Position numbers and translations under genes: made by a program
Notes under the pieces: model-generated
What the model saw: the letters and a program-made list of their open reading frames with translations, nothing else
Databases searched by the model: none
What the model was told of the DNA's origin: nothing
Assembly (NCBI RefSeq): GCF_023264855.1
Contig: NZ_JAHFUW010000044.1
Location: forward strand, 1 to 37,187
Origin: Herbiconiux sp.
GTDB lineage: Bacteria > Actinomycetota > Actinomycetes > Actinomycetales > Microbacteriaceae
Direction of reading: 5' to 3'
DNA length: 37,187 bases
Shown: in pieces, positions 2,180 through 17,684 of the stretch
How the letters are laid out: each line of letters begins with the position of its first letter
Numbering within the stretch: the stretch's first letter is position 1

Positions 2180-2187
2180 AAGGTGCA

Positions 2188-2193
2188 AGCATA
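2188..2193 (-). promoter_or_regulatory. -10 box TATGCT for the flippase-GT2 operon
   Basis: On the minus strand TATGCT is followed by 8 nt and the ATG of the flippase. This fits a leaderless or nearly leaderless transcript. No clear -35 was seen. Confidence 0.45.
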
Positions 2194-2235
2194 GTAGTCG
2201 CCGTCTCGGAGGTTCCGGGGCGCCAGGGAGGTTCT

Positions 2236-3252: not shown

Positions 3253-3314
3253 CCCTCACCCTCGCTGCGGCCGCGGCACGCGGGCTCCCAGGGCTCCTGC
3301 GGGAGGCCCGTAGC

Positions 3315-3320
3315 TATGAT
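3315..3320 (+). promoter_or_regulatory. -10 box TATGAT, leaderless-type promoter
   Basis: TATGAT is followed by exactly 7 nt and the ATG at 3328. This spacing makes the start codon the likely 5' end of the mRNA. It also decides between the ATGs at 3316 and 3328, since the first overlaps the -10 box. Confidence 0.5.
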
Positions 3321-3327
3321 GGGGGTC

Positions 3328-4469: not shown

Positions 4470-6193
4470 CGTTCGCCCCCGCATCATCCGGAGCCCGCTC
4501 CTACGGCCAAGGCGACGGCACGGTCTCCGCACCCGGCAGCGCCGCCGGATCGGCGTACGGCTCGCAGCCCGCCCCGCGCCGCTCCGTCTGGCGCTGGCTG
4601 CTGCTGCCCTGGATCCTGCTCTCGGTGCTCGGGGCGCTGTGGGCGCTCGCCACCCCGATCGGCGGCTCGCCCGACGAGCCCGCCCATGTGGTGAAGGCCG
4701 GCTCCGTGGTGCGCGGCGAGCTGCTGCCGAGCGAGATGATCCCGAGCGGCGGCGTGCTGCACGTGCCGGCCGCCCTCGCCTACGAGTACTCGCAGGGCTG
4801 CTTCGCGTTCTTCGCCGACGTCTCGGCCGCCTGCGCCCCGGCGTTCACCGGCGACCCGAACGAGATCGTCGAGAGCTACTCGGCCGCGAGCCTCTACAAC
4901 CCGGTCTACTACTGGATGGTGGGCTGGCCCACGCTGATCGCGCCCGACTACACGGGCATCTACGCCATGCGGATCGTCAGCGCCGTGCTCACCGCGTTCT
5001 TCCTGGCCGCGACGTTCTGGATGATCGGCGCCTGGCGCTCGCACCGCCTGCCCACGCTCGCCGTGATGGCGGCGATCACCCCCATCGTGCTCTACCTGAT
5101 GGGCACGGTGAACCCGAACACCCTGGAGTTCACCGCCGGCCTCGCCCTGTTCGCCGGCATGCTCGGCATCGTGCTGCAACCCGATCCACGACTTCTCGAC
5201 TCACGCCTGACGATGGTGGTGATCGCGGCCGCCCTGGTGTGCAACACCCGCGGCATCTCGCCGCTCTGGGTGGCGGTGCTGCTGGTGCTGCCGCTCATCC
5301 TGCTCACCGGGCGCGAGCTGGGCGCGCTGCTGAAACGCCCCGGCGTCATCATCAGCATCCTGCTGATCGCCCTCGGCGCCGTGGCGAGCATCGGCTGGAC
5401 GCTGTCCAGCAACTCGCTCGGCACCGGTCCGAGCGCGACTCCGGATGTGGTCTCCGAGGCCCCGGGCGTCGGCCTCACCCCGGTGGAGGGCTTCTTCGCC
5501 ATGATCGGCCAGTTCTACCTGCAGGCCCGGCAGATGGTGGGCATCCTGGGCTGGCTCGACACCCCGTTGCATCCGACGGTCTACTTCGTCACCTACGCCC
5601 TGGTCGGACTGCTCGCGCTCGGCACGATCATCTGGGTGCGCGGCCGCAAGCTGGTGTTCGTGATCGCGCTGGGGCTCGCGTTCTTCTTCCTGCCGCCGTT
5701 CATCCAGTCGTTCTACGTGACCAAGGGAGGGCTGATCTGGCAGGGCCGTTACACGCTCATCCTCGCCATGGCGCTGCTGCTCGGGATGGCGGCGTGCATC
5801 GCCGCATCACCGCGCTTCCTGCGCTGGACCCGCGGCCGCTGGGTGCTGACCGTCGTGGCCGTGCTGGCCGGCGCGGCCTGGACGTATGCGGTGGCCTATT
5901 CGTTCCAGACCACCATGCGCCGCTTCGCGGTCGGCTACGAGAACGAGTGGGCGCAGGTCGCCGATCCGGGCGCCTGGGTGCCGCCGCTCGGCGCCATCCC
6001 GCTCACCATCGCCTTCGCCGTCACGGCCGCACTGTTCGCCCTCTGGGTGGTGCTGGGAGGTCACGACCGCCGCCGCTCCACCTTGCAGCCCGCGACGCCC
6101 ATGGCGTTCCCGGGCGACCCCTACGGCCTGCAGACACCCCCGCCCTCCGCCGGCCGGCACCCGCTCGACCCCGCCTTCCCGACCCGCATCTGA
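4466..6193 (+). CDS. DUF2142 family membrane protein, GT-C-like glycosyltransferase candidate
   Basis: 575-aa polytopic membrane protein. A Gly/Ser/Ala-rich N-terminal cytoplasmic stretch of about 40 residues precedes the first membrane segment. The first extracytoplasmic loop holds GGSPDEPAHVVKAG, whose acidic residues match the conserved DUF2142 motif and resemble the catalytic loop of GT-C enzymes. About 10-12 further membrane segments follow, with a KGGLIWQGRY loop late in the protein. GT-C enzymes use polyprenyl-phosphate sugars on the outer face, so it is the natural user of the product of the GT2 two genes upstream (inference). The ATG at 4466 overlaps the previous stop. The C-terminal tail is Pro-rich and cytoplasmic. 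Confidence 0.85.
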   Translation: MTFAPASSGARSYGQGDGTVSAPGSAAGSAYGSQPAPRRSVWRWLLLPWILLSVLGALWALATPIGGSPDEPAHVVKAGSVVRGELLPSEMIPSGGVLHVPAALAYEYSQGCFAFFADVSAACAPAFTGDPNEIVESYSAASLYNPVYYWMVGWPTLIAPDYTGIYAMRIVSAVLTAFFLAATFWMIGAWRSHRLPTLAVMAAITPIVLYLMGTVNPNTLEFTAGLALFAGMLGIVLQPDPRLLDSRLTMVVIAAALVCNTRGISPLWVAVLLVLPLILLTGRELGALLKRPGVIISILLIALGAVASIGWTLSSNSLGTGPSATPDVVSEAPGVGLTPVEGFFAMIGQFYLQARQMVGILGWLDTPLHPTVYFVTYALVGLLALGTIIWVRGRKLVFVIALGLAFFFLPPFIQSFYVTKGGLIWQGRYTLILAMALLLGMAACIAASPRFLRWTRGRWVLTVVAVLAGAAWTYAVAYSFQTTMRRFAVGYENEWAQVADPGAWVPPLGAIPLTIAFAVTAALFALWVVLGGHDRRRSTLQPATPMAFPGDPYGLQTPPPSAGRHPLDPAFPTRI

Positions 6194-6207
6194 CACGCGG
6201 CCGCCGG

Positions 6208-6232
6208 GCCGGGCTCGGCGGCGCAGCCCGGC
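6208..6232. terminator. GC-rich stem-loop after the DUF2142 operon
   Basis: GCCGGGCT (6208-6215) pairs with AGCCCGGC (6225-6232) around a 9-nt loop, starting 15 nt after the DUF2142 stop. There is no U-tract, so this is a candidate terminator or mRNA 3' stabiliser only. The rest of 6194-6346 holds the promoter and palindromes of the next operon. Confidence 0.4.
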
Positions 6233-6294
6233 GGAGCCCGGCGGAGATCCCCGTGGTTCCGGGCCGAGCGCCGTGTCGCGGGTGGCGAAGCGCG

Positions 6295-6328
6295 GTGATC
6301 ACACAGCAGCAACGTCGGTGAAACACCG
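6295..6328. promoter_or_regulatory. Two palindromes upstream of the catabolic operon (candidate operators)
   Basis: GTGATCAC (6295-6302) is a perfect 8-bp palindrome. CGGTG-AAA-CACCG (6316-6328) is a perfect inverted repeat that ends 6 nt before the -10 box. GntR/HutC-type regulators bind short inverted repeats of the GT...AC kind, and a GntR/UTRA gene ends this operon, so the second repeat is a plausible operator (inference). Confidence 0.4.
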
Positions 6329-6334
6329 CCCGCC

Positions 6335-6340
6335 TACGCT
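6335..6340 (+). promoter_or_regulatory. -10 box TACGCT, leaderless-type promoter
   Basis: TACGCT is followed by 6 nt and the ATG at 6347. No Shine-Dalgarno sequence precedes this ATG, so a leaderless transcript is likely. The inverted repeat CGGTG-AAA-CACCG sits where RNA polymerase or a repressor would contact the promoter. Confidence 0.5.
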
Positions 6341-6346
6341 TCGGGA

Positions 6347-8026
6347 ATGGCCTCCACCCCTGCCGCTCGCGCTCGCATCGTGATCTTCTCCGGCCCGCGC
6401 GCCACCATCCAGAACAGTCCCGCCCTGCGCACCAGCCAGTCGGTGCGCCGCGACCGCGGTCTCGCCGGGGCCGACACGGGTCTCCCCGAATCGCTGCGCG
6501 CGCAGCAGCTGGCCGCGCCGGTCACCGTCTACGTGTCGGCGTTCTCGGCGCATCCGCTCGAAAAGGATGCCGCCGAGCTCTACGGCCCCGTCGACGGCTG
6601 GCTCGATCCGGAGACCGGCGCGTTCTCGACCGAGGAATCCACCGGCGCCACTCCCGTCTACAGGGTCACCCTCGACCCGGCCGACGGCCCCTTCCCCCTC
6701 CCCTACGCCGCCACGCAGGCGAACGGGCAGCCATGGGACGGGCCCTTCGACGACGCCGGCACCGCGCGCCAGCTGTTCTATCCCGACGCCTCGCGGATCG
6801 TGCGCGAGATCGATCACTTCGGGCTCGACGGCTACGGCGCCAACAACCTGATGAGTGACTTGGCCGACTTCGACTTCGTGCGCGCGGCGCCCTCCGGCGG
6901 CTACACCAAGGGGCAGCCCGCCGCCGAACGCACCGACACCCCGACGCCCGCCGGTCACCGCGGCGAACCGGGCGACCTCGCCCCCGAGACGCTCGGCGAG
7001 CACTTCTTCCCCTACATGCCGATGCGGCAGGAACCGGCGCTGCCGACGCTCGCCGCCCTCACGAACATCGTCTTCGACACCCTCGCCGCCGGCGACTATG
7101 ACGGCGCCATCTGGCTCGAGGGCAGCCCCACCACCGAAGAGACGGTCTACTGGTTCAACCTGCTCATCCCCACCACGAAGCCCCTGATCGGCAACTGCTC
7201 GCAGTACGGCCACGGGGTGTTCGGCAACGACGGCGACCACAACCTGGTGCAGTCGGCCACCTACATCGCCTCGAAGGTGTGGGCGGATGCCGAGGGCCAC
7301 GACCGCGTCGGCGCCGTGATGATCCAGAACGGCCAGGTCTTCACCTCCCGCGAGGTGCAGAAGGCGGATGCCCGCCCCGGCGGCTACATCGCCTACGGCG
7401 GTCACGGCGGCATCGTGGGCAACACGGTCGAGGAGCCGGTGCTCTCGTTCGTACCGGTGGCCCGGCACACCCACACCTCGGCTCTGTCGCTCGATCAGCT
7501 GCCCACCGCCGTCACCGGCATCCACGGGTCGCCCGTGCCCACGCGTGACGAGAACGGTCACCTGCTCGCCGACGCGCTGCCCAAGGTCACGATCGCGCGC
7601 TACGTGAACTACGGCCAGGACGACTTCTCCGACTCCGCCGACAGCGAGGTCGAGATCCTCGCCCGCATCCAGAAGAACCTGCGCGACCATCCGCTCTCGG
7701 GCATCGTGGCCGAGGGATCGGCCCCGTACGGCGGCGTGTACGAGTCGATGCGCGCCGCGCTGCTGCAGGGCGTGTTCCGCGGCATGCCTGTCGTGGCCGT
7801 CGGTCGTGGCGGCGGCGGCTACGCCTTCGGCCAGTCGACGCTCGGCGGTCTGCTCATCCGCGGCAGCAACCTCTCGGCGCCGAAGGCGCGCATCCTGCTG
7901 ATGGCGAGCCTGCTGAAGTTCGGCGCGCTGCCGGTTCCGGCCGATCCGGATGCTCCGACCCCCGCCGAGCTCGACGCCATCCGCCAGAAGGTGGCCGAGT
8001 ACCAGGCCGTCTTCGACACGCACTGA
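6347..8026 (+). CDS. Asparaginase-fold amidohydrolase-like protein, divergent catalytic motifs
   Basis: 559-aa cytoplasmic protein whose centre resembles the L-asparaginase family. LEGSPTTEET (residues 257-266) lines up with the asparaginase GTDTMEET block, and GNDGDHNLVQSA (about 293-304) lines up with the DGPxNL block. The C-terminal half keeps SGIVAEGSAPYGGVYESM, like the family's second domain. The key Thr-Asp pair of asparaginases is replaced by Ser-Pro, and the N-terminal GGTI site reads SGPRAT. It is also about 200 residues longer than a normal asparaginase. It may therefore act on another amide or ureide, or have lost this chemistry. It is first in a tight operon with two flavin oxygenases and a GntR regulator, suggesting hydrolysis of a ring-opened product (inference). 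Confidence 0.72.
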   Translation: MASTPAARARIVIFSGPRATIQNSPALRTSQSVRRDRGLAGADTGLPESLRAQQLAAPVTVYVSAFSAHPLEKDAAELYGPVDGWLDPETGAFSTEESTGATPVYRVTLDPADGPFPLPYAATQANGQPWDGPFDDAGTARQLFYPDASRIVREIDHFGLDGYGANNLMSDLADFDFVRAAPSGGYTKGQPAAERTDTPTPAGHRGEPGDLAPETLGEHFFPYMPMRQEPALPTLAALTNIVFDTLAAGDYDGAIWLEGSPTTEETVYWFNLLIPTTKPLIGNCSQYGHGVFGNDGDHNLVQSATYIASKVWADAEGHDRVGAVMIQNGQVFTSREVQKADARPGGYIAYGGHGGIVGNTVEEPVLSFVPVARHTHTSALSLDQLPTAVTGIHGSPVPTRDENGHLLADALPKVTIARYVNYGQDDFSDSADSEVEILARIQKNLRDHPLSGIVAEGSAPYGGVYESMRAALLQGVFRGMPVVAVGRGGGGYAFGQSTLGGLLIRGSNLSAPKARILLMASLLKFGALPVPADPDAPTPAELDAIRQKVAEYQAVFDTH

Positions 8027-8050
8027 TCTCCCGACCGATAGGAGCACCAC

Positions 8051-9124
8051 ATGGTCAGCTACGGAGTCTTCCTCCCCGTCGGCAACAACGGCTGGATCCT
8101 CTCGACCACCTCACCGCAGTACGAGCCGACCTTCGCGCTGCAGCGCGAGGTCGTGGCGCGCGCCGAGAAGCACGGCTTCGACTTCGCGCTGGCGATGCTG
8201 AAGTATCGCGGCTACGGCGGCGAGACGCAGCACTGGAACCACACCATCGACCCGATGACGCTGATGGCGGCGCTGGCCCCGATCACCTCGACGATCAAGC
8301 TCTACGCCACCGTCTCGCCGCTCAGCTACAACCCGATCGTGGTGGCCAAGATGGCGCAGCTGATCGACGAGATCTCGGGCGGCCGCTTCGGCATCAACCT
8401 GGTGGCCGGCTGGAACCGCAGCGAGTACGCCCAGATGGGCGCCTGGCGCGGCGACGACTACTACGGGTACCGCTACGACTACCTCAGCGAGTTCACCCAG
8501 ATCCTGCTGACCGCGTGGGAGACCGGCCGGGTCACCTTCCAGGGCGAGTACTTCGACATCGAGGACTGCGAGGTGGCCCCCGTTCCCGCGGGTCACATCG
8601 ACCTGATCTCGGCGGGCACCTCGGGGCGCGGTCGCCGCTTCGTGGCCGAGTACGCCGACTACCACTTCGGAGCGGGCGGTGACGCCGAGGAGGTGGCGGC
8701 CTCGAACTCCGCCCTCGCCGAGGCGAGCGCGAGCCTCGGCCGCACGCCGGGAGCCTTCGCGCAGACCCTCGTCATCCTCGGCGACACGGATGCCGACGCG
8801 GCCCGCAAGGTGGAGCTCTACACCCGGGGCGTCGATCGCGGGGCCGTGGCCGGCATGGTGCGCGAGTACTCCAACGACACCTCCACCGACGGCTCCAGTG
8901 CGATGGTGGCGGAGAGCCACCGGGCCGAGGTGTCGCCGTTCTACGGCGGCCGCGCGCTCGTGGGCTCGCCGCAGACCGTGGCCGACCACCTCAACGCCAT
9001 CGCGGCCGTGCCGGGCACCGCGGGCACCATGCTCACCTTCGACGACTTCCTCGAGGGCGTCGACCGCTTCGGCACCGAGGTCATGCCGCTGCTGGACCAC
9101 CTGCCGGCGACGAAGGAAGGCTGA
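8051..9124 (+). CDS. RutA-like pyrimidine/N-heterocycle flavin oxygenase (LLM family)
   Basis: 357-aa luciferase-like FMN-dependent oxygenase. The N-terminus GVFLPVGNNGWILSTTSPQY is very close to the RutA signature as I recall it, and FDFALAMLKYRGYGG, ISGGRFGINLVAGWNRSEY, and the late LTFDDFLEGVDRFG all follow RutA order and spacing. RutA opens the uracil ring using reduced FMN and oxygen. The near full-length resemblance makes a pyrimidine or related cyclic amide the likely substrate. No RutB, RutF or other rut genes lie beside it, so the rest of the pathway differs from the E. coli one. ATG at 8051 has AGGAG 6 nt upstream. It starts 24 nt after the asparaginase-like gene and is followed by a second oxygenase after 3 nt. 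Confidence 0.85.
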   Translation: MVSYGVFLPVGNNGWILSTTSPQYEPTFALQREVVARAEKHGFDFALAMLKYRGYGGETQHWNHTIDPMTLMAALAPITSTIKLYATVSPLSYNPIVVAKMAQLIDEISGGRFGINLVAGWNRSEYAQMGAWRGDDYYGYRYDYLSEFTQILLTAWETGRVTFQGEYFDIEDCEVAPVPAGHIDLISAGTSGRGRRFVAEYADYHFGAGGDAEEVAASNSALAEASASLGRTPGAFAQTLVILGDTDADAARKVELYTRGVDRGAVAGMVREYSNDTSTDGSSAMVAESHRAEVSPFYGGRALVGSPQTVADHLNAIAAVPGTAGTMLTFDDFLEGVDRFGTEVMPLLDHLPATKEG

Positions 9125-9127
9125 CCC

Positions 9128-10474
9128 GTGCCCTACCAGATGAGCCTCGCGCTCGACCTCTCGTTCTCGCACCACCAGGGCCGCTGGCGGCTCCCCGGCT
9201 CCTGGGCCGGCCGCGACTTCCCCGACCTGCGGATGTACCGCGAATTGCTGCTCGCCGCCGAGCGCGGCTGCCTCGACATGGTGTTCTTCGGCGACGGAAC
9301 CGGCATCCCCTCCACCTACGGCGCCTCGATCGATCCGGCCGTCGAGTGGGGCATCGGCTTCCCCCGGCAGGACATGAGCCCGTTCATCGCGGCGCTCGCC
9401 CAGGACACGCAGCACATCGGCTTCGGGCTCACCTACTCGTCGACCTTCCTGCATCCGTTCTACGTGTCGCGCCTGCTCAACTCGCTCGACATCGTGACGA
9501 ACGGGCGGATGGCCTTCAACGTGGTCACCTCCTCGCGGGGGGCGGATGCCGCCAACTTCGGCTTCGACGAGCTGATGGACCACGACGCCCGGTACCGCCG
9601 GATGGAGGAGTTCGTGCGGGTGTGCCAGGAGCTCTGGCGCAGTGTCGACCGCGACGCGTTCGTGTGGGACCGCGAGACCGGCATGGTGGCCGAACCCGGC
9701 AGCATCCGGGCCATCGACCACCACGGGGAGTTCTTCGACGTGGCCGGGCCGCTGAACACCGTGGCGAGCCCGCAGCAGGCGCCCGTGCTGATCCAGGCCG
9801 GCGGATCGCCTCGCGGCATCCGCGCCTCGGCCGGCTTCGCCGACGTGGTGTTCGGCGGGGCGTTCGCCGAGGCCGACCGGGTGCGCCACCGCACCGCCCT
9901 CGACCAGGAGCTGCTCGCCGCCGGCCGCGACCCGTCGCGAGTCGGCATCCTGTGGGATCTGCACCTGATCGTGGGCGACACCCCGGATGACGCGCGCCGG
10001 CGCAAGGAGCAGCTGGCCGACTTGCTGCCGCCCGAGGCCTCGGCCGCCCAGTTCGCCCACAACACCGGATACGACTTCGCCTCCCTGCCCGCGCGCTTCA
10101 CGCTGGAGGAGCTGCAGGCCGAGGTGATCGCCAAGCAGGCCAGCCCGATGGGCTTCCGCGATCTCGTGAACGAGCACGGCGCCACCACCGAGCTCAGCCG
10201 CGAGGAGTTCTTCGACTCGCTCTGGAAGGTGGCCACCGGGTACGAGCACACCGTCGCGGGCAGTGCCGCCGAGGTGGCCGACTACCTCGAGGAGTCGTAC
10301 GAGTCGACCGGCAGCCGGGGCGGTTTCATGATCGCGCACCCGCAGGTGACGCCTCGCGACCTGATCGACGTTGTCGGGCTGCTGGTGCCCGAGCTGCAGC
10401 GCCGCGGGCGGTTCCGCACCCGCTACGACGGCACGACGCTGCGAGACACCTTGGGAGTGCCGGAGTTCGCGTGA
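9128..10474 (+). CDS. NtaA/SnaA/DszA-family FMN-dependent monooxygenase
   Basis: 448-aa LLM-class flavin monooxygenase of the nitrilotriacetate/dibenzothiophene-sulfone type. Features seen are GRDFPDLRMYRELLLAAERG, an FGDG strand, LSRLLNSLDIVTNGR-type and FNVVTSSRGADAANFG, the DHDARYRRMEEFV helix, and VLIQAGGSPRG, which binds FMN phosphate in this family. The length matches the family norm. Such enzymes need reduced FMN from a separate reductase, and none is encoded nearby. The GTG at 9128 is preceded by GGAAGG 7 nt upstream and lies 3 nt after the RutA-like stop, so the two oxygenases are coupled. They could act in sequence on one compound, or on two related ones; the substrate is unknown. 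Confidence 0.88.
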   Translation: MPYQMSLALDLSFSHHQGRWRLPGSWAGRDFPDLRMYRELLLAAERGCLDMVFFGDGTGIPSTYGASIDPAVEWGIGFPRQDMSPFIAALAQDTQHIGFGLTYSSTFLHPFYVSRLLNSLDIVTNGRMAFNVVTSSRGADAANFGFDELMDHDARYRRMEEFVRVCQELWRSVDRDAFVWDRETGMVAEPGSIRAIDHHGEFFDVAGPLNTVASPQQAPVLIQAGGSPRGIRASAGFADVVFGGAFAEADRVRHRTALDQELLAAGRDPSRVGILWDLHLIVGDTPDDARRRKEQLADLLPPEASAAQFAHNTGYDFASLPARFTLEELQAEVIAKQASPMGFRDLVNEHGATTELSREEFFDSLWKVATGYEHTVAGSAAEVADYLEESYESTGSRGGFMIAHPQVTPRDLIDVVGLLVPELQRRGRFRTRYDGTTLRDTLGVPEFA

Positions 10475-10487
10475 GAGGCTCGAGTCG

Positions 10488-11363
10488 ATGACGAGCGCCA
10501 CCTCAGACGACCAAAACCCGGCCGATGAGCCGGGGCAGACCGACGACGCCCAGCGCGTGGATGGGTCCGTGCACCCGGCGCGACCGTTCGGCGGCTCCGG
10601 GCCCCGGCGGCGCAGCTTCACCGACGACAAGATGCTCGACCTCGGTCAGCACCGACGCCAGGATGAGGCCAGGCGGCTTCGCGATCTCGTGTCGGCCTTC
10701 GTGCTGGCCGCCGCCGACAGCGGGCAGCGGTTGCCCTCGGACGAGGAGATCGCGCGCGAGTTCTCCTGCACCCGCAACACCGCCCGCATCGCGATGCAGA
10801 TGCTCGTGCAGGAGAACACCATCGGCCGCACGGCCGGGCAGGGCACCTACGCCCACAGCCGTCCCACCACCTGGCGCACCGACCGTCTACTCGACATGCT
10901 GCGGATCGACCCCGCCCCGCTCGAGCACGACTACCTGCTGATCGGCTGGCGCGAGACCTCCGCGGTGCCCGCATCGATGGCCGCGGTGTTCTCCCCCGAC
11001 ACGACCCGGATGGCGGTGTTCGAGCGCGTGGTGCTCTACCGCAATCGGCCCGGTTCGCTCCGCACCTACTACGTTCCGCTGCGCGACGAGGACGATTTCA
11101 CGCGCAGCGACGCGAACGACGACGTGCTCGAAATCTTGGAGGGCCGCTTCGGCCACCGGCCGCTCAGCGCCTCGCGCCAGATCAGCGCGATATCGGCCGA
11201 CCTCTCGGCCGCCGAGCTGCTCTCGGTCGACGTGGGGTCGCCGCTGCTATTCATCGAGACGACGGTGCGCTCGGCCGCCGGCCACGTCGTGATGGTCTAC
11301 CACGGCCGCCAGCGCTCCGACCAGGTGCGCGTGGAGCTGTCCCCGGCCCGCGTCGAGCTCTAG
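10488..11363 (+). CDS. GntR-family transcriptional regulator with UTRA domain (HutC-type)
   Basis: 291-aa regulator. A polar N-terminal extension of about 45 residues comes first. The winged helix-turn-helix is at about 60-122 (RLPSDEEIAREFSCTRNTAR, then GRTAGQGTYAHS), and a C-terminal UTRA ligand domain is at about 140-288 (FGHRPLSASRQISAISA, then LLFIETTVRSAAGHVVM). HutC-type proteins are usually repressors released by a pathway substrate or intermediate. It is the last gene of the asparaginase-like/RutA-like/NtaA-like operon, so autoregulation through the palindromes at 6295-6328 is the simple model (inference). ATG at 10488 has GAGAGG about 9 nt upstream; the longer frame upstream overlaps the oxygenase and is not credible. 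Confidence 0.9.
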   Translation: MTSATSDDQNPADEPGQTDDAQRVDGSVHPARPFGGSGPRRRSFTDDKMLDLGQHRRQDEARRLRDLVSAFVLAAADSGQRLPSDEEIAREFSCTRNTARIAMQMLVQENTIGRTAGQGTYAHSRPTTWRTDRLLDMLRIDPAPLEHDYLLIGWRETSAVPASMAAVFSPDTTRMAVFERVVLYRNRPGSLRTYYVPLRDEDDFTRSDANDDVLEILEGRFGHRPLSASRQISAISADLSAAELLSVDVGSPLLFIETTVRSAAGHVVMVYHGRQRSDQVRVELSPARVEL

Positions 11364-11432
11364 TTGTGGTCCTTTCCAGGGCGGCGTGGTCCGGCGCGCA
11401 ATCACCGTCCGGCTCAAATTAATCGAGCTTTC

Positions 11433-11453
11433 ATCAGGTCTTTCTGATAGAAT
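11433..11453 (+). promoter_or_regulatory. Promoter with -10 TAGAAT and overlapping inverted repeat
   Basis: TAGAAT (11448-11453) is followed by 6 nt and the ATG at 11460, a leaderless pattern. ATCAG (11433-11437) and CTGAT (11444-11448) form an inverted repeat around 6 nt that touches the -10 box and could be an operator. The segment about 11415-11460 is clearly A/T-richer than its surroundings. Confidence 0.5.
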
Positions 11454-11459
11454 CTCAGT

Positions 11460-12857
11460 ATGCAGACAGTAGCTCGACTCCAAGGGATCGCCGCCGATCT
11501 CCGTGGCGACGAGGGCGAGATCAACGCCGCGATGGCAGGGCTGCAAGACGAGGATCTGCTGGAGGTGATGGCCGCTATTGAGGCGGCCGGGCGGGCGCTC
11601 TCGGCCTGGCAGATTCGGGTGGCCGGTGAGGTCGGGGTGCGGTCGCGCAGCGAGCTCGGGGACGAGGGGTTGAGCAGGTCGCAGAACTTCACCAGCCCGG
11701 TCAAGCTCGTCTCAACCATCACTGGCACGTCAGCACGCGAGAGCAAGGCGCGGCTCGAGATCGGGCGCAAACTACGCGGGGCGGTGCTACTGGGTGGCGG
11801 TGAAGGGCCGGCCCCGTTCCCGGCCGTCGGCCGGGCCCTCGACGAAGGCTCCCTCGGGGTTGAGACGGCGTCGATCATCGTGACCCGGTGCGCCGAACTG
11901 TCGGAGCGCGGATGCGCCCCCGAGGTTGTGGCCAGCGCCGAGCAGACCCTCGTCGACGAGACCCTCACCAACCACCTCACTGCCGATCAGACCTCCAGGC
12001 TCGCCATTCATCTTCGTGAGGTCATCGATCCCGATGGTGCGGAGCCTCGGGATGAGCGACTCCAGCAGCAGCGCTCCCTCACCATCAGCCAGGCCAGTGA
12101 CGGGATGATCCGCGGCCGGTTCGCCCTCACACCCGAACAGGGCAGTGTGTGGCTGGCGAGCATCCAGGCCATGCAAAGCCCCCGCATCGCAGGATCACCC
12201 TCCAGTGGACCGCGGTTCCTGACCGAAGACGAATACGTGGCACACACCGCCACCGCCGACATTCGCACGCAGGCGCAGAAGAACTCCGACACCGTCACCG
12301 AACTCATCGCCCGCGCTGCCGGCGCCCCTGACATGCCGCGCCTCAACGGTGCCACCACCACCCTTAACGTGCACATCACTCTCGACAACATCGAGGCGGG
12401 GCGCGGGGTCGGCTGGATTGATGGCATCGACGAGCCCGTTCCCGCTTCCACCGTGGCGCAGTTGCGCTGCACCTCCCCGATCGCGGTGACCCTGTTCAGC
12501 GACCGTGGCGCGGTGCTGTACCACGGCAAGACAGAACGGCTCTTCACTGCGGCTCAGAATCGGGCGCTCGCGGCCCGAGATGGCGGATGCGTGTGGCCCG
12601 ACTGCGACCGGCCCCCCTCATTCTGCGAAACACACCACGCAGATGAATGGGTCTCCGCCGATCACCCGCCGGGACGTACCGATATCGACAACGGCGTGCT
12701 GCTCTGCCATTTCCATCACTCGCACCTGCACAAGTCATCCTGGAAACTGACCATGCATGCGGGTGTGCCCCACCTCATCCCGCCGAGGTGGATCGATATC
12801 GAGCAGACGCCGATCCCGACCACCCGCCGACGCACCACCCAACGCCCAGCCGCCTAA
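11460..12857 (+). CDS. DUF222 (REP13E12-like) HNH endonuclease family protein
   Basis: 465-aa protein with an N-terminal helical DUF222 domain (about residues 20-330) and a C-terminal HNH nuclease motif. The motif shows CVWPDCDRP, CETHHADEW and CHFHHSHLH, which gives two Cys pairs and the His residues of a zinc-stabilised beta-beta-alpha-metal nuclease. Families of this kind occur in many copies in actinobacterial genomes, often near repeats, and are suspected selfish elements; their cellular role is not known. It sits alone between the catabolic operon and a convergent MFS gene, with its own promoter. The sequence just upstream is A/T-rich and the gene uses more A/T-ending codons than its neighbours, which fits transfer. 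An unusual inverted repeat lies 34 nt after its stop. Confidence 0.88.
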   Translation: MQTVARLQGIAADLRGDEGEINAAMAGLQDEDLLEVMAAIEAAGRALSAWQIRVAGEVGVRSRSELGDEGLSRSQNFTSPVKLVSTITGTSARESKARLEIGRKLRGAVLLGGGEGPAPFPAVGRALDEGSLGVETASIIVTRCAELSERGCAPEVVASAEQTLVDETLTNHLTADQTSRLAIHLREVIDPDGAEPRDERLQQQRSLTISQASDGMIRGRFALTPEQGSVWLASIQAMQSPRIAGSPSSGPRFLTEDEYVAHTATADIRTQAQKNSDTVTELIARAAGAPDMPRLNGATTTLNVHITLDNIEAGRGVGWIDGIDEPVPASTVAQLRCTSPIAVTLFSDRGAVLYHGKTERLFTAAQNRALAARDGGCVWPDCDRPPSFCETHHADEWVSADHPPGRTDIDNGVLLCHFHHSHLHKSSWKLTMHAGVPHLIPPRWIDIEQTPIPTTRRRTTQRPAA

Positions 12858-12890
12858 CCACGCACGCCCGTCTCCGCGAACCGGGCACGG

Positions 12891-12995
12891 TCATCGTGGG
12901 CAAGCGCGAAGCGCGCGGCAGACCCTCGCCGAGCCAACCATCCAGGCACCGAACCGTACGGGGGCTGCCGCGCGCTCCGCGCTTGCCGACGATGA
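12891..12995. repeat. 31-bp imperfect inverted repeat with 43-nt loop
   Basis: The left arm (12891-12921) and the right arm (12965-12995) match as reverse complements at 29 of 31 positions. The arms carry the core GGCAAGCGCG and end in GCGCGCGGCAG. The structure lies between the DUF222-HNH gene and the convergent MFS gene. It has no T-run. It may be a repetitive extragenic palindrome, a miniature element remnant, or a strong bidirectional terminator. The remainder of 12858-13117 has no credible gene. Confidence 0.75.
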
Positions 12996-13054
12996 TCATG
13001 GCTGGGTCGGCAAAGCCTGATCGCACCCGGGGCAGGTGAGGATCGCTTGTGACC

Positions 13055-13073
13055 GTCCCTGCCGGCCAGGGAC
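13055..13073. terminator. Perfect 7-bp stem-loop between convergent genes
   Basis: GTCCCTG (13055-13061) and CAGGGAC (13067-13073) pair around CCGGC. It lies 45 nt downstream of the MFS stop on the minus strand and also downstream of the HNH gene. A U-tract is absent, so it is a candidate only. Confidence 0.4.
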
Positions 13074-13117
13074 ATGACCGGATCGCTTCCACGAAGACAA
13101 GGCGTGGGTGTCATGGG

Positions 13118-14422
13118 CTATCCGATCACACTTCTCCGCCCGGGGCGGAGCGAGGGGGCGAGCACGGCCAGGGCGACCAGCAGCACAGCCGCGATGACGG
13201 CGACCGCGGCGAGGTCTCCGGAGGCGGCCGCGAGCGCGAACACCAGAAGCGGGCCGACGGCGGCGCCGACGTCGCCTGCCGTGCGGGTGAGCCCGACCAC
13301 GGCGCCGGCCGCCGCCGGAGCGAATCGCTCGCTCGTGACGACGTTCGGCACCACACCGGCCACGCTCGTGGCCAGGTAGTACAGCACGATCGCGGCGCCG
13401 AAGCCGAGCGGCCACGTGAGAAATGGGAACGCCAGCAGCACGGCCGCACCGACGACTCCGGCGGGCACGAGCACCGTGAGCCGCGCACCGCGGTCGACCA
13501 GCCTCCCTATTCCGGGCAGCACCGCGATGCTCACCACCGTGCCCACCGCCATCGCCACGCCCAAGCCCAAGGGTGAGAGACCGCCGGTGCCGTAGGCCAG
13601 CACCGGGATGAGACCCTGCTCCCCCGCGAAGCGCGCCAGGAAGGTGGCGAAGGAGAACACCACCAGGCCCACCACCAGCCGCCGGCCACTGGAGCGCTCA
13701 AAGCCAGTGGGATCTGCGGACTCCGCAGCTACCGGAGACGTCGAAGCGCCGTGCGGCTCCGGCACGGGCTCGAGTACGGTCGCCGACACAGGCACCTCCG
13801 GCGAGCGCCGGAACGCACCCCAGTAGTGTCGCGCCGGCCGCAACAGGTCGACCCCGAGGCACAGCAGCAGCGGCACCGCCGCCACGGCGAACGCCGCGGT
13901 CACGCCCCAGCCCTCCACCACGACCCCGCCGAGCAGCGCACCCACCGCCGACCCGCTCATCTGCACCACGGTCGCCGTCGCCATCGTGCGGCCCCGCCGA
14001 TCCGCCGGCGCCCCCGCCACCAGCACCGCGAAGCCGATCGTCACCGCAGCACCGCCCAGCACGCCCGCGAGCAGTCGCGCGCCGAGCAGCAGCGGCTCCG
14101 AGTCGAGCAGCCCGGTCACCGCGGTCAGCGCCACCAGCAGCACCGAGACCACCTGGAGGAAGGGCCGGGGCGGGATGCGGCGGAGCGCGAGCCCCGCCGG
14201 CACGTTGGCCAGCACCCGCCCGATCGCGAAGGCCGCGATCAGCAGGCCGATGCTGCCCACCCCGATCCCGAACCGCTCGACCAGCAGCGGCAGCGCCGGC
14301 ACGATCACGCCCCAGGTCATCTGCACCGACGCGATGAACGCGCAGACGAGGATCGCCTGCGCGTTCATGCCGAGCGGAGCGGATGCCCGCCCGGCCGCCC
14401 CACCACCGGCGGCCGGGGGCAT
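13118..14422 (-). CDS. MFS transporter (12-TMS type)
   Basis: Major facilitator of 434 aa from this start, with about 12 membrane segments. N-half features are GVIVPALPLLVERFGIG in the first loop, IGRVLANVPAG, and the TM5-like GSAVGALLGGVVVEGWG. A long polar linker (about 40 residues, Pro/Ser/Ala-rich, EVPVSATVLEPVPEPHG...) joins the two six-helix halves. The start is uncertain. ATG 14422 lies 8 nt after the binding-protein stop and adds an 18-residue Pro/Ala/Gly segment, while ATG 14368 gives a more usual MFS N-terminus; neither has a good ribosome-binding site. It is translated directly after an orphan substrate-binding lipoprotein. Export or uptake direction and substrate are unknown; context suggests the same compound family as the oxygenases (inference). 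Confidence 0.85.
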   Translation of the reverse strand: MPPAAGGGAAGRASAPLGMNAQAILVCAFIASVQMTWGVIVPALPLLVERFGIGVGSIGLLIAAFAIGRVLANVPAGLALRRIPPRPFLQVVSVLLVALTAVTGLLDSEPLLLGARLLAGVLGGAAVTIGFAVLVAGAPADRRGRTMATATVVQMSGSAVGALLGGVVVEGWGVTAAFAVAAVPLLLCLGVDLLRPARHYWGAFRRSPEVPVSATVLEPVPEPHGASTSPVAAESADPTGFERSSGRRLVVGLVVFSFATFLARFAGEQGLIPVLAYGTGGLSPLGLGVAMAVGTVVSIAVLPGIGRLVDRGARLTVLVPAGVVGAAVLLAFPFLTWPLGFGAAIVLYYLATSVAGVVPNVVTSERFAPAAAGAVVGLTRTAGDVGAAVGPLLVFALAAASGDLAAVAVIAAVLLVALAVLAPSLRPGRRSVIG

Positions 14423-14430
14423 CCCCGGGA

Positions 14431-15624
14431 TCAGTCCATCCCGATCGAGCTGTCGATGAACTCGTTCGTCACCAGGTCGGCGGGCGTGAGCGAGTCGGCG
14501 ACGGTGATGCCCTGCTGGCTGTAGACCGGCAGCACCTTGTCCATCAGATCCTGCACCCGCGCCTCGTCGAAGTCGCCCAGAGTGTCGTTGTCGCCGTTGC
14601 CCGAGATGCCCTCGGAGAGCATCGTCTCGACCGAGTAGTCCGCCACACCCTGCGTGTAGACCCAGCCGGTGTCGTACTGGTCGACCAGGTCGAGGATGAG
14701 GGCGTTCGTGGCATCCGGAGCCGCGAAGTAGTCCACCTCGGCCTGCTGCAGCACCGGCACGAGGGCGGCGAGGCAGTCCGGCTGCGCGGCCACGTCGTCG
14801 CTGCGCACCACGACCGGATCCTGGTACGGCCGGAAGCCGAGGTCGTCGATCAGCTGGTACTGCACGGGCTTCATCCAGCTCTCCACCTCGTTCTCGTAGA
14901 CGTAGGGCTCGGCGGAGGCGTAGCCCTGCTGGGCGTCCTTGCCACCCGCCGCCACGAACGAGGCGGGGCTGCCGTCGTACGACCCGTCGGTCTGATCGGC
15001 CGGGATGATGCCCGCCGAGGTGAGGTACTCCATGTAGGCGGTGCCGTCGAAGTACCGGATGATCGCGCCGGCGTCGACGAGGTCGGTCACGCCCTTCACG
15101 TCGGGATAGGTCTCCGGGTCCCACATGATCATCAGCGGGCTGATGTCGTGCGAGGCGAACACCGCGGTGGTGGGCATCTCGGCCGACTGGGCGATCGACT
15201 CGTCGGTGGAGACGTAGCCGAGCAGAATGTCCGGATCGGTGTACATCAGGCTGCTCACGGTCTGGTATCCGGTGGCCGGCCCGCCCGCCCGGATCTCCAC
15301 GTCGACGCCGGTGTACTCGCCACCGGCCATCAACGGACCGGAGACCACCTTGTTCGTGGCGTCGATCGTGTAGTCGTCGCCGAGCAGCTGGTAGAGGTGC
15401 CCGTGCTCGGCCTCCGGATTCCAGCCGGTCTGGATGACGACCATCGCCGGGCAGCCGGCCGCGGCGAGGTCGGTGGCGCCGACGCTGAGTGCGGCATCCG
15501 TGGCGGCGTCCTCGCTGGCCGAGGAGCCGGAGCTGCACGCGGTGAGCAGCAGCGCGGTGGCTGCGAGGGCGCCGATCGCCACGGCGGTCTTCGGTGGGGT
15601 GCGAAGCGGAATGGTGCGGAGCAT
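14431..15624 (-). CDS. NMT1/THI5-like substrate-binding lipoprotein
   Basis: 397-aa exported lipoprotein. The N-terminus has a signal with lipobox LLLTAC, so Cys30 is the expected lipidation site. The mature part begins with a strand and GWNPEAEHGHLYQLLG, the first ligand-binding loop of NMT1/THI5-like periplasmic-type proteins, several of which bind pyrimidine precursors or other N-compounds. A later region, SHDISPLMIMWDP, matches the family's hinge region. The ATG at 15624 is chosen because GAGGGAG lies 6 nt upstream and it places the signal peptide correctly; the frame is open further upstream but without such support. No ABC permease or ATPase gene accompanies it. An MFS gene follows after 8 nt. 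Confidence 0.82.
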   Translation of the reverse strand: MLRTIPLRTPPKTAVAIGALAATALLLTACSSGSSASEDAATDAALSVGATDLAAAGCPAMVVIQTGWNPEAEHGHLYQLLGDDYTIDATNKVVSGPLMAGGEYTGVDVEIRAGGPATGYQTVSSLMYTDPDILLGYVSTDESIAQSAEMPTTAVFASHDISPLMIMWDPETYPDVKGVTDLVDAGAIIRYFDGTAYMEYLTSAGIIPADQTDGSYDGSPASFVAAGGKDAQQGYASAEPYVYENEVESWMKPVQYQLIDDLGFRPYQDPVVVRSDDVAAQPDCLAALVPVLQQAEVDYFAAPDATNALILDLVDQYDTGWVYTQGVADYSVETMLSEGISGNGDNDTLGDFDEARVQDLMDKVLPVYSQQGITVADSLTPADLVTNEFIDSSIGMD

Positions 15625-15820: not shown

Positions 15821-16327
15821 CTACGGCGCGACGCTGCGGGAGGCGTCGGCCTCCTTGTTCTTCAGAGCGGTGTAGCCGTCGGACCGGGTGGGCGCGAACA
15901 CCCAGTAGCGGTAGAGCAGGAAGCGGAACGCCGTGGCCAGCACCAGCCCCACCACGTTGCCCGAGATGTTGTCGGCCAGCAGGCTGGTAAGGCCGAGGAG
16001 GTAGTGCGAGACGTAGAGGCAGGCGAGCGAGATGCCGAGGCCGATCACGGCGATCAGGCTGAACTCGGCGAGCTCGAGCAGGAAGTTCTTGCGGCGGTGC
16101 TCGCGGAAGGTCCAGTACCGGTTGCCGAACCAGGTGACCAGCGTCGAGATCGTGACCGAGATGAACTTGCCGCCGAGCGGGGTCTCGTACCAGCCGTCGC
16201 CCAGGGCGCCGGACCACAGCAGGTTCGAGATGCCGAGGTCGATGAAGTAGCCGACCAGCCCGACGACCCCGAACTTGAGGGCGTACCGCACCAGGCGTTC
16301 CCAGAGGTAGTCCCAGATCTTCTTCAC
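15821..16327 (-). CDS. GtrA-like small membrane protein
   Basis: 168-aa protein with four membrane segments typical of GtrA: FGVVGLVGYFIDLGISNLLW, a second with FISVTISTLVTWFGNRYWTF, and two more before a polar C-terminus. WFGNRYWTFREH is the family's best conserved block. GtrA-like proteins are thought to flip polyprenyl-linked sugars or to work with a DPM-like GT2. The GTG at 16327 is chosen because it gives a normal N-terminus (KKIWDYLWERLVRYALKFG); the frame is open further upstream but would add about 60 residues without membrane features. It diverges from the dehydrogenase operon with 151 bp between starts. Its GT2 partner may be the GT2 at 17681 or the DPM-like one at 3328 (inference). 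Confidence 0.85.
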   Translation of the reverse strand: MKKIWDYLWERLVRYALKFGVVGLVGYFIDLGISNLLWSGALGDGWYETPLGGKFISVTISTLVTWFGNRYWTFREHRRKNFLLELAEFSLIAVIGLGISLACLYVSHYLLGLTSLLADNISGNVVGLVLATAFRFLLYRYWVFAPTRSDGYTALKNKEADASRSVAP

Positions 16328-16397
16328 GAATTCGCCGTTCTCACCGATCGATGCGGGGCGGCGGTGTGCCGAGCCCTGAAGATGATAACCGACCCTG

Positions 16398-16429
16398 TAT
16401 CCTGACCCATGCTCTACTAGTGTCGACAC
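16398..16429 (+). promoter_or_regulatory. Possible promoter and palindrome upstream of the dehydrogenase operon
   Basis: TATCCT (16398-16403) resembles a -10 box; the same TGTATCCT octamer precedes the ABC-exporter permease gene. GTGTCGACAC (16420-16429) is a perfect 10-bp palindrome near the expected transcript start. No convincing -35 was seen. Confidence 0.3.
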
Positions 16430-16478
16430 GGACATCGGGGGTGGAGCGGCCCATGATAACGATGCGAGGTCAGACCTT

Positions 16479-17684
16479 TTGTCCACGAATTTCGAAAACG
16501 ACGTCGTCGTCATCGGGGGCGGCGGTCACGTCGGTCTTCCCCTCGCGATCGCGCTGGCCGACCGCGGTTCGCGGGTGGTCGTGTACGACCTCAGCGAGAA
16601 GGCCGTCGCCGGCATCCTGGCTGGCCGGATGCCGTTCAGCGAGCCGGGTGCCGAGCCCGTGCTGCAGAAGGCGCTGGCCGACGGCATGCTGACGGCGTCG
16701 ACGGATGCGGCGGTCGTCGCGACCGCCGAGAACGTGGTCGTGGTCATCGGCACGCCCGTCGACGAGCACCTGAACCCCGATCCGAACGCCATCCCCAAGG
16801 CGCTCGAAGCGTGCATGCCCTACTTCTCCGACGAGCAGCTGCTCATCCTGCGCAGCACCGTCTACCCGGGTGTCACCGCCTTGGTGGAGCGTCGCCTGCG
16901 CGAGGCGGGCCTGGGTACCGAGGTCGCGTTCTGCCCCGAGCGCATCGCCGAGCACAAGGCGATGGAAGAGCTGTTCACCCTCCCCCAGATCGTCTCCAGC
17001 CGCACCGCGACGGGCCGCGCTCGCGCCGCCGCGCTGTTCGGCACCCTCACCGAGCAGATCGTGCACCTCGAGCCCGAAGAGGCCGAGCTGGCGAAGCTGT
17101 TCACCAACACGTGGCGCTACATCAAATTCGCCGCGGCGAACCAGTTCTACATGATGGCGAACGACCGCGGTCTCGACTTCGAGAAGATCCGCAAGGGCCT
17201 CACGCACGACTACCCCCGCGCCAAAGACCTGCCGGGCCCCGGTTTCGCCGCCGGCCCGTGCCTGTTCAAAGACACCATGCAGCTCGCCGCGTTCAGCGAC
17301 AACAAGTTCGCGCTCGGCCACTCGGCCATGCAGGTGAACGAGGGGCTGCCGCTGTACATCGTCACGCAGCTCGAGAAGCGCTTCGACCTCGAGAACCTCA
17401 CCGTGGGCATCCTCGGCATGGCGTTCAAGGCCGGGTCGGACGACATCCGCTCGTCGCTCTCCTACAAGCTGCGCCGGGTGCTGAAGTTCCGGGCGAAGGC
17501 CGTCATCGGCACCGACCCGCACGTCACCGAGGAGACCGACGACACGCTGCTGCCGTTGGAGTCGGTGCTCGAGAAGGCCGACATCCTGATCGTCGCCACG
17601 CCGCATGCGGAATACCGCGACATCCAGACGGACAAGCCCGTCGCGGATGTCTGGAACCTGCTCGGCCAGGGGGTCCTGATTTGA
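16479..17684 (+). CDS. Nucleotide-sugar dehydrogenase (UDP-glucose/UDP-ManNAc dehydrogenase family)
   Basis: 401-aa cytoplasmic NAD-dependent dehydrogenase that would oxidise the C6 hydroxyl of a UDP-sugar to a carboxylate. The Rossmann motif is VVVIGGGGHVGLPLA (about 9-23). FCPERIAEHKAM (about 151-162) and AELAKLFTNTWRYIKFAAANQ (about 203-221) match the family. The catalytic Cys is in AGPCLFKDT (Cys261), where classical enzymes have GGxCxPKD, so the subfamily is unusual. C-terminal MAFKAGSDDIRSS is the usual second-domain motif. The start is TTG with GAGGT about 9 nt upstream; the nearby ATG is out of frame. Its stop overlaps the next TTG start, and a GT2 and an epimerase follow, so it supplies a uronic-acid or related donor. 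The exact sugar is unknown. Confidence 0.9.
   Translation: MSTNFENDVVVIGGGGHVGLPLAIALADRGSRVVVYDLSEKAVAGILAGRMPFSEPGAEPVLQKALADGMLTASTDAAVVATAENVVVVIGTPVDEHLNPDPNAIPKALEACMPYFSDEQLLILRSTVYPGVTALVERRLREAGLGTEVAFCPERIAEHKAMEELFTLPQIVSSRTATGRARAAALFGTLTEQIVHLEPEEAELAKLFTNTWRYIKFAAANQFYMMANDRGLDFEKIRKGLTHDYPRAKDLPGPGFAAGPCLFKDTMQLAAFSDNKFALGHSAMQVNEGLPLYIVTQLEKRFDLENLTVGILGMAFKAGSDDIRSSLSYKLRRVLKFRAKAVIGTDPHVTEETDDTLLPLESVLEKADILIVATPHAEYRDIQTDKPVADVWNLLGQGVLI

What the first reader, a model, noticed from the sequence alone, without database searches (positions are those of the whole stretch)
6347..15624. Candidate undescribed pathway: RutA-like and NtaA-like oxygenases with an asparaginase-fold protein, GntR regulator, and NMT1-like uptake pair
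A RutA-like oxygenase is coupled to a second flavin monooxygenase and to an asparaginase-like protein, with no RutB, RutC, RutD or flavin reductase. Across a DUF222-HNH gene lie an NMT1/THI5-like binding lipoprotein and an MFS transporter; that family includes pyrimidine binders. A consistent model is uptake of a pyrimidine-like or cyclic-amide compound, oxidative ring opening by the RutA-like enzyme, a further oxidation, and hydrolysis by the asparaginase-fold protein. The family calls are seen by eye; the shared substrate is inference.
Basis: partly seen in the sequence, partly recalled or inferred. Interest (0 to 1): 0.72.

Follow-up and report, generated by a model that had tools for sequence, protein, structure and literature searches.

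The report
Two-oxygenase operon with asparaginase-fold hydrolase
An actinobacterium carries a compact, transplantable set of genes that looks built to import a small nitrogen-containing compound, break it open with two oxygen-using flavin enzymes and finish it with an unusual relative of asparaginase; the gene set recurs in other bacteria but its substrate is unknown.

Summary
An asparaginase-fold protein, a RutA-like oxygenase, an NtaA-like oxygenase and a GntR-UTRA regulator form a tight operon (6347-11360), with an MFS transporter and an NMT1-type binding lipoprotein convergent behind it. The four-gene core is together in 9 genomes of three Microbacteriaceae genera and sits at different chromosomal sites within Herbiconiux. 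The RutA-like/NtaA/asparaginase-fold trio recurs on an Agrobacterium vitis plasmid, with flavin reductase, GntR and ABC transporter. The DUF222-HNH gene, absent from the 8 relatives examined, is judged an intruder.

New here: other Microbacteriaceae loci (9 of 9 fetched, of 19 found) carry a parallel operon with the same NtaA subfamily and a RutA-like enzyme, but with a RutB-like isochorismatase where the window has the asparaginase-fold protein. In that protein's family, also found outside Actinomycetota, the catalytic Asp of asparaginase is an invariant Pro (41 of 41 rows); elsewhere its genes often sit near formamidases, amidases, isochorismatases and NMT1 transporters.

The RutA-like protein forms a sister clade of true RutA, not a member. 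Most likely a catabolic operon for an N-heterocycle or cyclic amide. The substrate is not shown; an organosulfur substrate is the main rival.

The parts
6347..8026 (+). Asparaginase-fold protein (559 aa), first gene of the operon; T20, S260, P261, K339 invariant in its family
   Evidence: PF00710 E 1.1e-7; Foldseek asparaginases E 1.6e-13; residue survey over 41 rows
8051..9124 (+). RutA-like flavin monooxygenase (357 aa), sister clade to RutA proper
   Evidence: TIGR03612 386.5 bits, under the cut-off of 498.3; trees
9128..10474 (+). NtaA/DmoA-family FMN-dependent monooxygenase (448 aa)
   Evidence: TIGR03860 363.4 bits, over the cut-off; 23-row subfamily clade 100/100
10488..11363 (+). GntR-family regulator with UTRA domain
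   Evidence: PF07702 E 2.3e-15, PF00392 E 1.7e-8; present in 8 of 8 relatives of the operon
13118..14368 (-). MFS transporter; its family also follows NtaA in most of the parallel operons
   Evidence: PF07690 E 8e-36; matched in 5 of 8 relatives and 6 of 9 parallel operons
14431..15624 (-). NMT1/THI5-type substrate-binding lipoprotein, orphan (no ABC permease or ATPase beside it in the window)
   Evidence: hhalign 95.4%, E 1.7e-8; ortholog adjacent in 6 of 8 relatives; lipobox-like LLLTAC seen in the sequence
11460..12857 (+). DUF222(-HNH) gene, judged an insertion and not part of the system
   Evidence: PF02720 E 2.3e-31; no match in 8 of 8 relatives of the operon

Best explanation
A substrate-induced catabolic cassette for a small N-heterocycle or cyclic amide, used as nitrogen (and perhaps carbon) source. 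The binding lipoprotein captures the compound outside (inferred); entry is by the MFS protein or by an ABC translocator encoded elsewhere (inferred). FMNH2 comes from a flavin reductase elsewhere in the genome, or from one beside the cassette in some relatives (inferred). The RutA-like enzyme makes an oxygenative C-N (amide) cleavage that opens the ring, by the chemistry known for RutA (inferred from homology). The NtaA-like enzyme makes a second oxygenation on the same molecule or its product (inferred). The asparaginase-fold protein hydrolyses the resulting amide or ureide, the task done by a RutB-like isochorismatase in the parallel operon of the same family (inferred from position). The GntR-UTRA protein senses the substrate or an intermediate (inferred). 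Shown: the genes, their families, their conservation as a unit, their different sites in related genomes, the parallel operon, and the changed catalytic motif of the asparaginase-fold protein.
For: The four-gene core is intact in 8 of the 11 genomes that hold the asparaginase-fold gene among 299 Microbacteriaceae (neighbours), plus one named genome (L022): 9 in all. All 8 genomes with an NtaA of 76% identity or more (of 297 searched) are these same 8. The same three enzyme families stand together on Agrobacterium vitis plasmid CP146243.1 with flavin reductase, GntR and a three-gene ABC transporter (identities to the window 33, 57 and 44%). Parallel operon with RutA-like, isochorismatase and NtaA in 9 of 9 fetched loci, of 19 found. 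The asparaginase-fold family in 28 loci outside the window type: isochorismatase in 11 of 28 against 1 of 20 control stretches; NMT1 protein 10 of 28 against 0 of 20; in the 22 of these loci outside Actinomycetota, acetamidase/formamidase 11 of 22 against 0 of 20 and amidase 10 of 22 against 0 of 20. RutA-like falls next to RutA, not with the SfnG-like paralogs. Paralogs of the lipoprotein in two fetched loci lie beside creatininase-family genes (L060; L055), L060 also having an amidohydrolase gene.
Against: The substrate is not shown by any result. The oxygen-pocket residues shared with E. coli RutA (L65, T105, N134, V136, F224) are all shared too by the two SfnG-like paralogs L004 and L005, and E292 is not kept in the window protein, so they say nothing on substrate. 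The catalytic Asp90 position of asparaginase is an invariant Pro, so hydrolysis is unproven. No shared palindrome was found before the operon and the lipoprotein gene, so co-regulation is not shown. Seven of the 28 loci outside the window type (L026, L086, L088, L149, L150, L153, L155) have none of the other hydrolases counted (isochorismatase, formamidase, amidase, urease), so that link is not general. NMT1-type binding proteins and SsuE-like reductases also serve sulfonate uptake (recalled; sub-threshold SsuA_fam and SsuE hits on proteins of relatives).
Confidence: 0.55

Rival explanations
1. Organosulfur scavenging: the two oxygenases cleave C-S bonds of a sulfone, sulfonamide or heterocyclic sulfonate, the NMT1-type protein is an SsuA-like binder, and the asparaginase-fold protein trims an amide.
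For: Best solved relative of the NtaA-like protein is the sulfone enzyme DszA. A parallel operon has an SsuE-like FMN reductase (TIGR03567 85.5 bits, below the cut-off of 164.05), and its binding protein and that of relative L047 hit SsuA_fam weakly (38.8 and 51.2 bits, cut-off 163.5).
Against: The RutA-like protein scores 386.5 bits for RutA against 157.8 for SfnG and 77.8 for SsuD and groups with RutA. Isochorismatases, formamidases and amidases often accompany the asparaginase-fold family. The regulator is GntR-UTRA.
Confidence: 0.17
2. A plain variant of the Rut pathway for uracil or thymine, with the asparaginase-fold protein standing in for RutB.
For: Clade next to RutA proper; residues L65, T105, N134, V136, W139, F224 as in E. 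coli RutA, though two SfnG-like paralogs share these.
Against: Outside the 10-row RutA-proper clade (100/98) and under the RutA equivalog cut-off; RutA genes in two annotated rut operons stand with RutB, RutC and RutD, while here a second oxygenase is kept instead; 6 of the 8 type-A genomes have a second NtaA gene of 54-58% identity, in the parallel operon in the 3 of 6 that I fetched, which suggests different substrates.
Confidence: 0.13
3. Degradation of a pyridine-type ring, with the RutA-like protein acting like a pyridine ring-opening monooxygenase.
For: A Rhodococcus plasmid from coking-plant wastewater has a 46% identical LLM gene with flavin reductase, amidohydrolase, acetamidase/formamidase and amidase genes; that such an enzyme opens pyridine is recalled, not found in the searched papers.
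Against: That protein forms its own clade with L076 (100/98), not with the window clade.
Confidence: 0.1
4. The asparaginase-fold protein is not an enzyme of the pathway but a binding or scaffolding protein, since the canonical Asp is gone.
For: Asp90 position is Pro in 41 of 41 rows.
Against: S260 and K339 are in 41 of 41 rows and T20 in 39 of 39 rows with a residue there; at 88 positions all rows that have a residue agree, as expected of an active site kept under selection.
Confidence: 0.15

Closest known systems
Rut pathway (RutA-RutB-RutC-RutD-RutF, pyrimidine catabolism)
   Same: A RutA-like flavin monooxygenase in an operon with a hydrolase; flavin reductase nearby in 3 of 8 relatives
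   Different: RutA-like protein is in a sister clade and below the equivalog cut-off; no isochorismatase or RidA gene in 8 of 8 relatives; the RutB place is taken by an asparaginase-fold protein; an NtaA-family oxygenase is present in 9 of 9 genomes
Parallel Microbacteriaceae operon (ABC-NMT1, RutA-like, isochorismatase, NtaA, often MFS and flavin reductases), found here and not met in the paper searches named
   Same: Same NtaA subfamily (54-59% identity), same MFS family in 6 of 9, RutA-like partner
   Different: RutA-like partner of another clade (35-38% identity); isochorismatase instead of the asparaginase-fold protein; ABC transporter genes with the operon
NtaA/DmoA/DszA-family FMN-dependent monooxygenases
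   Same: Over the TIGR03860 cut-off; DszA is the best solved relative
   Different: Own subfamily against six outgroup proteins; solved members act on nitrilotriacetate, dimethyl sulfide, sulfones, hexachlorobenzene, EDTA or riboflavin (names of PDB entries); a RutA-type partner for any of these is not known to me (recalled)
Type II L-asparaginase (AnsB)
   Same: Fold; Ser at the Thr89 place and Lys at the Lys162 place of the second catalytic motif
   Different: Asp90 replaced by invariant Pro, long stretch between first and second motif, gene context of N-compound catabolism

Membership tests
RutA (TIGR03612 equivalog) | Score over the curated cut-off of 498.3 bits | tested here: not met
   386.5 bits
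RutA (TIGR03612 equivalog) | Falls inside the clade of RutA proteins from rut operons | tested here: not met
   Own clade of 9 (100/100) beside the RutA clade of 10 (100/98), 33-row tree with five rows left out
RutA (TIGR03612 equivalog) | Neighbouring RutB, RutC, RutD | tested here: not met
   None among the genes called in the window; isochorismatase and RidA in 0 of 8 relatives (RutD was not searched for)
RutA (TIGR03612 equivalog) | Oxygenative amide cleavage of uracil | not testable with these tools
   needs assay
NtaA/DmoA subfamily (TIGR03860) | Score over the curated cut-off of 279.7 bits | tested here: met
   363.4 bits
Type II L-asparaginase | Asparaginase fold | tested here: met
   Foldseek E 1.6e-13, TM-score by target 0.69, model pLDDT 64
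Type II L-asparaginase | Second catalytic motif Thr89-Asp90-Lys162 | tested here: not met
   Ser260, Pro261, Lys339, each in 41 of 41 rows
Type II L-asparaginase | Score over the type II model cut-off | tested here: not met
   TIGR00520 39.4 bits against 314.3
NMT1/THI5-like binding protein (PF09084) | Pfam match | tested here: not met
   no PF09084 match up to E 0.5
NMT1/THI5-like binding protein (PF09084) | Profile-level homology to NMT1 proteins | tested here: met
   hhalign 95.4%, E 1.7e-8; phmmer 2e-9 to 4e-11 for 6 orthologs
NMT1/THI5-like binding protein (PF09084) | NMT1 fold in a structure model | tested here: inconclusive
   model pLDDT 40, unusable

The most novel reading that the evidence does not exclude
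An undescribed catabolic route in which two different flavin N5-type oxygenases work on one N-heterocycle and an asparaginase-fold hydrolase with a rebuilt active site (Ser-Pro-Lys in place of Thr-Asp-Lys) does the job of RutB; the hydrolase family serves several such routes in Actinomycetota, Alphaproteobacteria and other groups.
Probability: 0.35. Interest if true: 0.75.

Novelty: new variant of a known kind. Interest (0 to 1): 0.55.

Why it matters
It turns a loose guess into a defined cassette with a built-in comparison: two operon types in the same bacterial family, alike in the NtaA subfamily and in having a RutA-like partner, unlike in the hydrolase. That makes the role of the asparaginase-fold family directly testable by swapping one gene. 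It also points at proteins annotated only as 'asparaginase domain-containing protein' (the two annotated of four plasmid hits) that often lie near formamidases, amidases and isochorismatases, in one locus near a hydantoinase (L154), and may hold a new amide-cleaving chemistry.

Tried and rejected
Structure of the binding lipoprotein: model unusable, mean pLDDT 40, so no fold search was made on it. Oxygen-pocket residues as a sign of uracil specificity: rejected, since two SfnG-like paralogs share them. Shared operator before the operon and the lipoprotein gene: a palindrome scan of 260-base upstream stretches found none in common; only L024 and L054 share a near-palindrome before the asparaginase-fold gene. 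Terminal repeats at the cassette edges: longest shared string 9 bases, as in shuffles. Papers: searches brought up no description of this operon, of the asparaginase-fold family, or of the pyridine enzyme I recalled; two returned nothing; of the other listings I opened three papers and saw passages only (PMC10005588, PMC7662398, PMC7356986). The library holds only openly licensed PubMed Central papers. Whole-genome co-occurrence is not independent evidence genome by genome, since the type-A genomes belong to three genera. The place of the A. vitis and C79 RutA-like proteins in the tree is unsure (long branches). The NtaA tree holds no sulfone or sulfonate enzyme of known function. The Thr20 = catalytic Thr12 equivalence is by eye from the motif (LAGPTATIQN against LATGGTIAG); no profile alignment covered it. 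In one search the AnsB translation lacked its first Met, so printed positions 88, 89, 161 are Thr89, Asp90, Lys162 in the usual numbering (recalled). The 41 asparaginase-fold rows hold three genomes twice (L049/L021, L061/L023, L062/L024). Control stretches were set at round-number positions in six genomes, not drawn at random. I first took the gene upstream of the cassette for a glycosyltransferase; Pfam calls it DUF2142.
Full report
What is there. Between a DUF2142 membrane protein gene (4466-6190) and a GtrA gene (15824-16513) lies the reported set. Four genes run on the + strand with 24, 3 and 13 bases between them: an asparaginase-fold protein, a RutA-like oxygenase, an NtaA-like oxygenase and a GntR-UTRA regulator. 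Then come a DUF222 gene on the + strand, and an MFS transporter and a binding lipoprotein on the - strand.

Family calls. The RutA-like protein is best described by the RutA model but stays under its cut-off, 386.5 against 498.3 bits. The NtaA-like protein is a full member of TIGR03860. The asparaginase-like call is right on fold: the profile of 11 relatives hits L-asparaginases, best E 1.8e-24, and the structure model hits them, best E 1.6e-13 (model confidence moderate, pLDDT 64). Pfam gives no NMT1 call for the lipoprotein, but profile comparison with seven NMT1-type binding proteins does (95.4%, E 1.7e-8; six of the seven are Pfam-confirmed NMT1).

Conservation as a unit. Among 299 Microbacteriaceae genomes 11 hold the asparaginase-fold gene at E 1e-20 or better; in a sample of 394 genomes of the class it is in 3 at E 1e-30, the window's included. 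In 8 of the 11 it is followed by RutA-like, NtaA-like and GntR genes (the window, G205, G093, G011, G007, G153, G080, G195); L022 is a ninth genome. The other 3 of 11 (G022, G123, G241), and a second copy in G195, have another context. The 8 NtaA genes of 76% identity or more in 297 genomes all belong to these clusters. Of the 8 relatives examined in larger stretches, 6 have the lipoprotein beside the operon and 5 the MFS family of the window; L021 has the lipoprotein and another MFS gene beyond it; L046 and L047 have an NMT1 binding protein upstream and an MFS gene after GntR. The DUF222 gene is in none of the 8.

A moving block. In H. gentiana (G011) the genes that flank the cassette in the window stand next to each other without it, their aligned parts 64 bases apart (L202), while the cassette lies on another contig (L061). 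In G093 the same locus also lacks the cassette, with about 1.5 kb between the two genes (L205), and the cassette lies on another contig (L062). So the genes stay together at different sites. No repeats mark the edges.

Across phyla. On Agrobacterium vitis plasmid CP146243.1 the order is flavin reductase, GntR, binding protein, ATPase, permease, LLM oxygenase, NtaA/DmoA oxygenase, small unknown gene, asparaginase-fold protein. Identities to the window are 33% for the LLM protein, 57% for NtaA and 44% for the asparaginase-fold protein. It was the only plasmid record of 72,556 with an NtaA match at E 1e-95 and one of 4 with the asparaginase-fold gene at E 1e-20.

The parallel operon. NtaA genes of 54-59% identity occur at 19 further places in the 297 genomes. 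I fetched 9 of these 19. All 9 have a RutA-like gene, an isochorismatase and the NtaA gene in direct succession, and all 9 have an ABC permease; 6 of 9 have the window's MFS family, 6 of 9 a flavin reductase and 5 of 9 an FMN reductase by the thresholds used. Isochorismatase, NMT1 and reductase calls were checked by Pfam on examples; the two isochorismatases tested hit RutB and biuret hydrolase models below cut-off. Six genomes with the window type (G011, G093, G205, G007, G153, G195) have a second NtaA gene of this kind; of these I fetched G011, G007 and G195, all with the parallel operon. The window genome has one NtaA match at that limit. So the asparaginase-fold protein stands where the parallel operon has a RutB-like hydrolase. 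That the two do the same job is inference.

Trees. In a 33-row tree with five rows of the full set left out (three SfnG-like paralogs, A. vitis, C79), RutA from rut operons and their actinobacterial kin form one clade (10 rows, 100/98), the window type another (9 rows, 100/100), and two other proteins (Rhodococcus PD04 plasmid, L076) a third (100/98); the order of these three is open, and the parallel-operon proteins lie apart (full set). For NtaA, window type (9), parallel type (9), A. vitis and four from the family search around G681 form one clade of 23 (100/100) against six outgroup proteins. Those four have no RutA-like gene of this kind in the fetched stretch. So 19 of the 23 members of this NtaA subfamily stand with a RutA-like partner, and that partner and the hydrolase vary.

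The asparaginase-fold family. Over 41 rows (38 without the three doubled genomes; 42-100% identity to the window) Ser260, Pro261 and Lys339 never vary; they align with Thr89, Asp90 and Lys162 of E. coli AnsB. Thr20 is present in the 39 rows that have a residue there. The window and 11 other rows have Arg18 where 23 rows have Thr. Outside the window type, neighbours within the fetched stretches were counted in 28 loci against 20 control stretches at round-number positions in six of the same genomes: isochorismatase 11 of 28 against 1 of 20 (P 0.007), NMT1 protein 10 of 28 against 0 of 20 (P 0.002), ABC permease of the NMT1 type 11 of 28 against 2 of 20 (P 0.02); and in the 22 loci outside Actinomycetota acetamidase/formamidase 11 of 22 against 0 of 20 (P 0.0002), amidase 10 of 22 against 0 of 20 (P 0.0004), urease 4 of 22 against 1 of 20 (P 0.2, not distinct). 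Seven of the 28 loci show none of these four hydrolases (L026, L086, L088, L149, L150, L153, L155). In 4 of 6 actinobacterial loci (L050-L053) isochorismatase, NMT1 protein and ABC permease are all present. The stretches differ in length and the genomes are related, so the P values are rough.

Mechanism. RutA cleaves the N3-C4 amide of uracil, by a flavin N5-peroxide in the current proposal (passages of PMC7662398 and PMC10005588). The window protein keeps the oxygen-pocket residues, but so do two SfnG-like paralogs, so only the general chemistry may be carried over. The best-supported reading is: uptake, oxygenative ring opening by the RutA-like enzyme, a second oxygenation by the NtaA-like enzyme, and hydrolysis by the asparaginase-fold protein, under a ligand-sensing GntR protein. 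Order and substrate are inferred. FMNH2 must come from outside the cluster in this genome; 8 candidate reductases exist, and 3 of 8 relatives have one in the fetched stretch.

Verdict. A real and conserved cassette, most likely catabolic, a new variant of RutA-type catabolism, with an open substrate. That it is undescribed rests on searches in an open-licence library only.

Noticed in passing
L156-L164 (nine loci): Parallel operon in Microbacteriaceae: ABC-NMT1 set, RutA-like, isochorismatase, NtaA, often MFS and flavin reductases; looks like a pathway of its own, with a small unknown gene of about 140-170 aa often nearby (no Pfam match for the one tested).
   Followed up: partly
L084 (G000:C79), 4867-11171 of the locus: A second RutA-like gene of the same genome stands in a row with a putative cyclase, a flavin reductase and a carbon-nitrogen hydrolase: another candidate ring-opening cluster.
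   Followed up: partly
L085 (G496:C96), 119-6057 of the locus: Two RutA-like genes flank a RidA-family (L-PSP) gene and an unknown gene, with flavin-reductase-like and ABC-like genes (by eye): a further Rut-like arrangement.
   Followed up: partly
G000:C78, C34, C26 (L055-L057): Three paralogs of the window's binding lipoprotein (59-71% identity) in the same genome; L055 has a creatininase gene beside it, and a related locus in G205 (L060) has creatininase, FAD-binding and amidohydrolase genes.
   Followed up: partly
L089, L146-L148: The asparaginase-fold gene lies between an acetamidase/formamidase gene and urease genes, with a dipeptide ABC transporter (annotated in L089, by homology and eye in the others).
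   Followed up: partly
L027, L028: Two asparaginase-fold genes in tandem.
   Followed up: no
L026 (MAG labelled Chitinophaga pinensis): Neighbours look by eye like Bug/TctC-type binding proteins common in Burkholderiales, so the contig may be wrongly binned; the phylum label should not be relied on.
   Followed up: no
window 11460-12857: DUF222(-HNH) gene between the operon and the transporter genes, absent from all 8 relatives of the cluster examined.
   Followed up: yes
whole genome G000: 37 matches to luciferase-like flavin oxygenases in one genome, a rich set.
   Followed up: no
L102-L105: Four members of the NtaA subfamily stand without a RutA-like partner of that kind, in one case (L103) beside Rieske-type, RidA-like and polysaccharide-deacetylase-like genes (by eye).
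   Followed up: no
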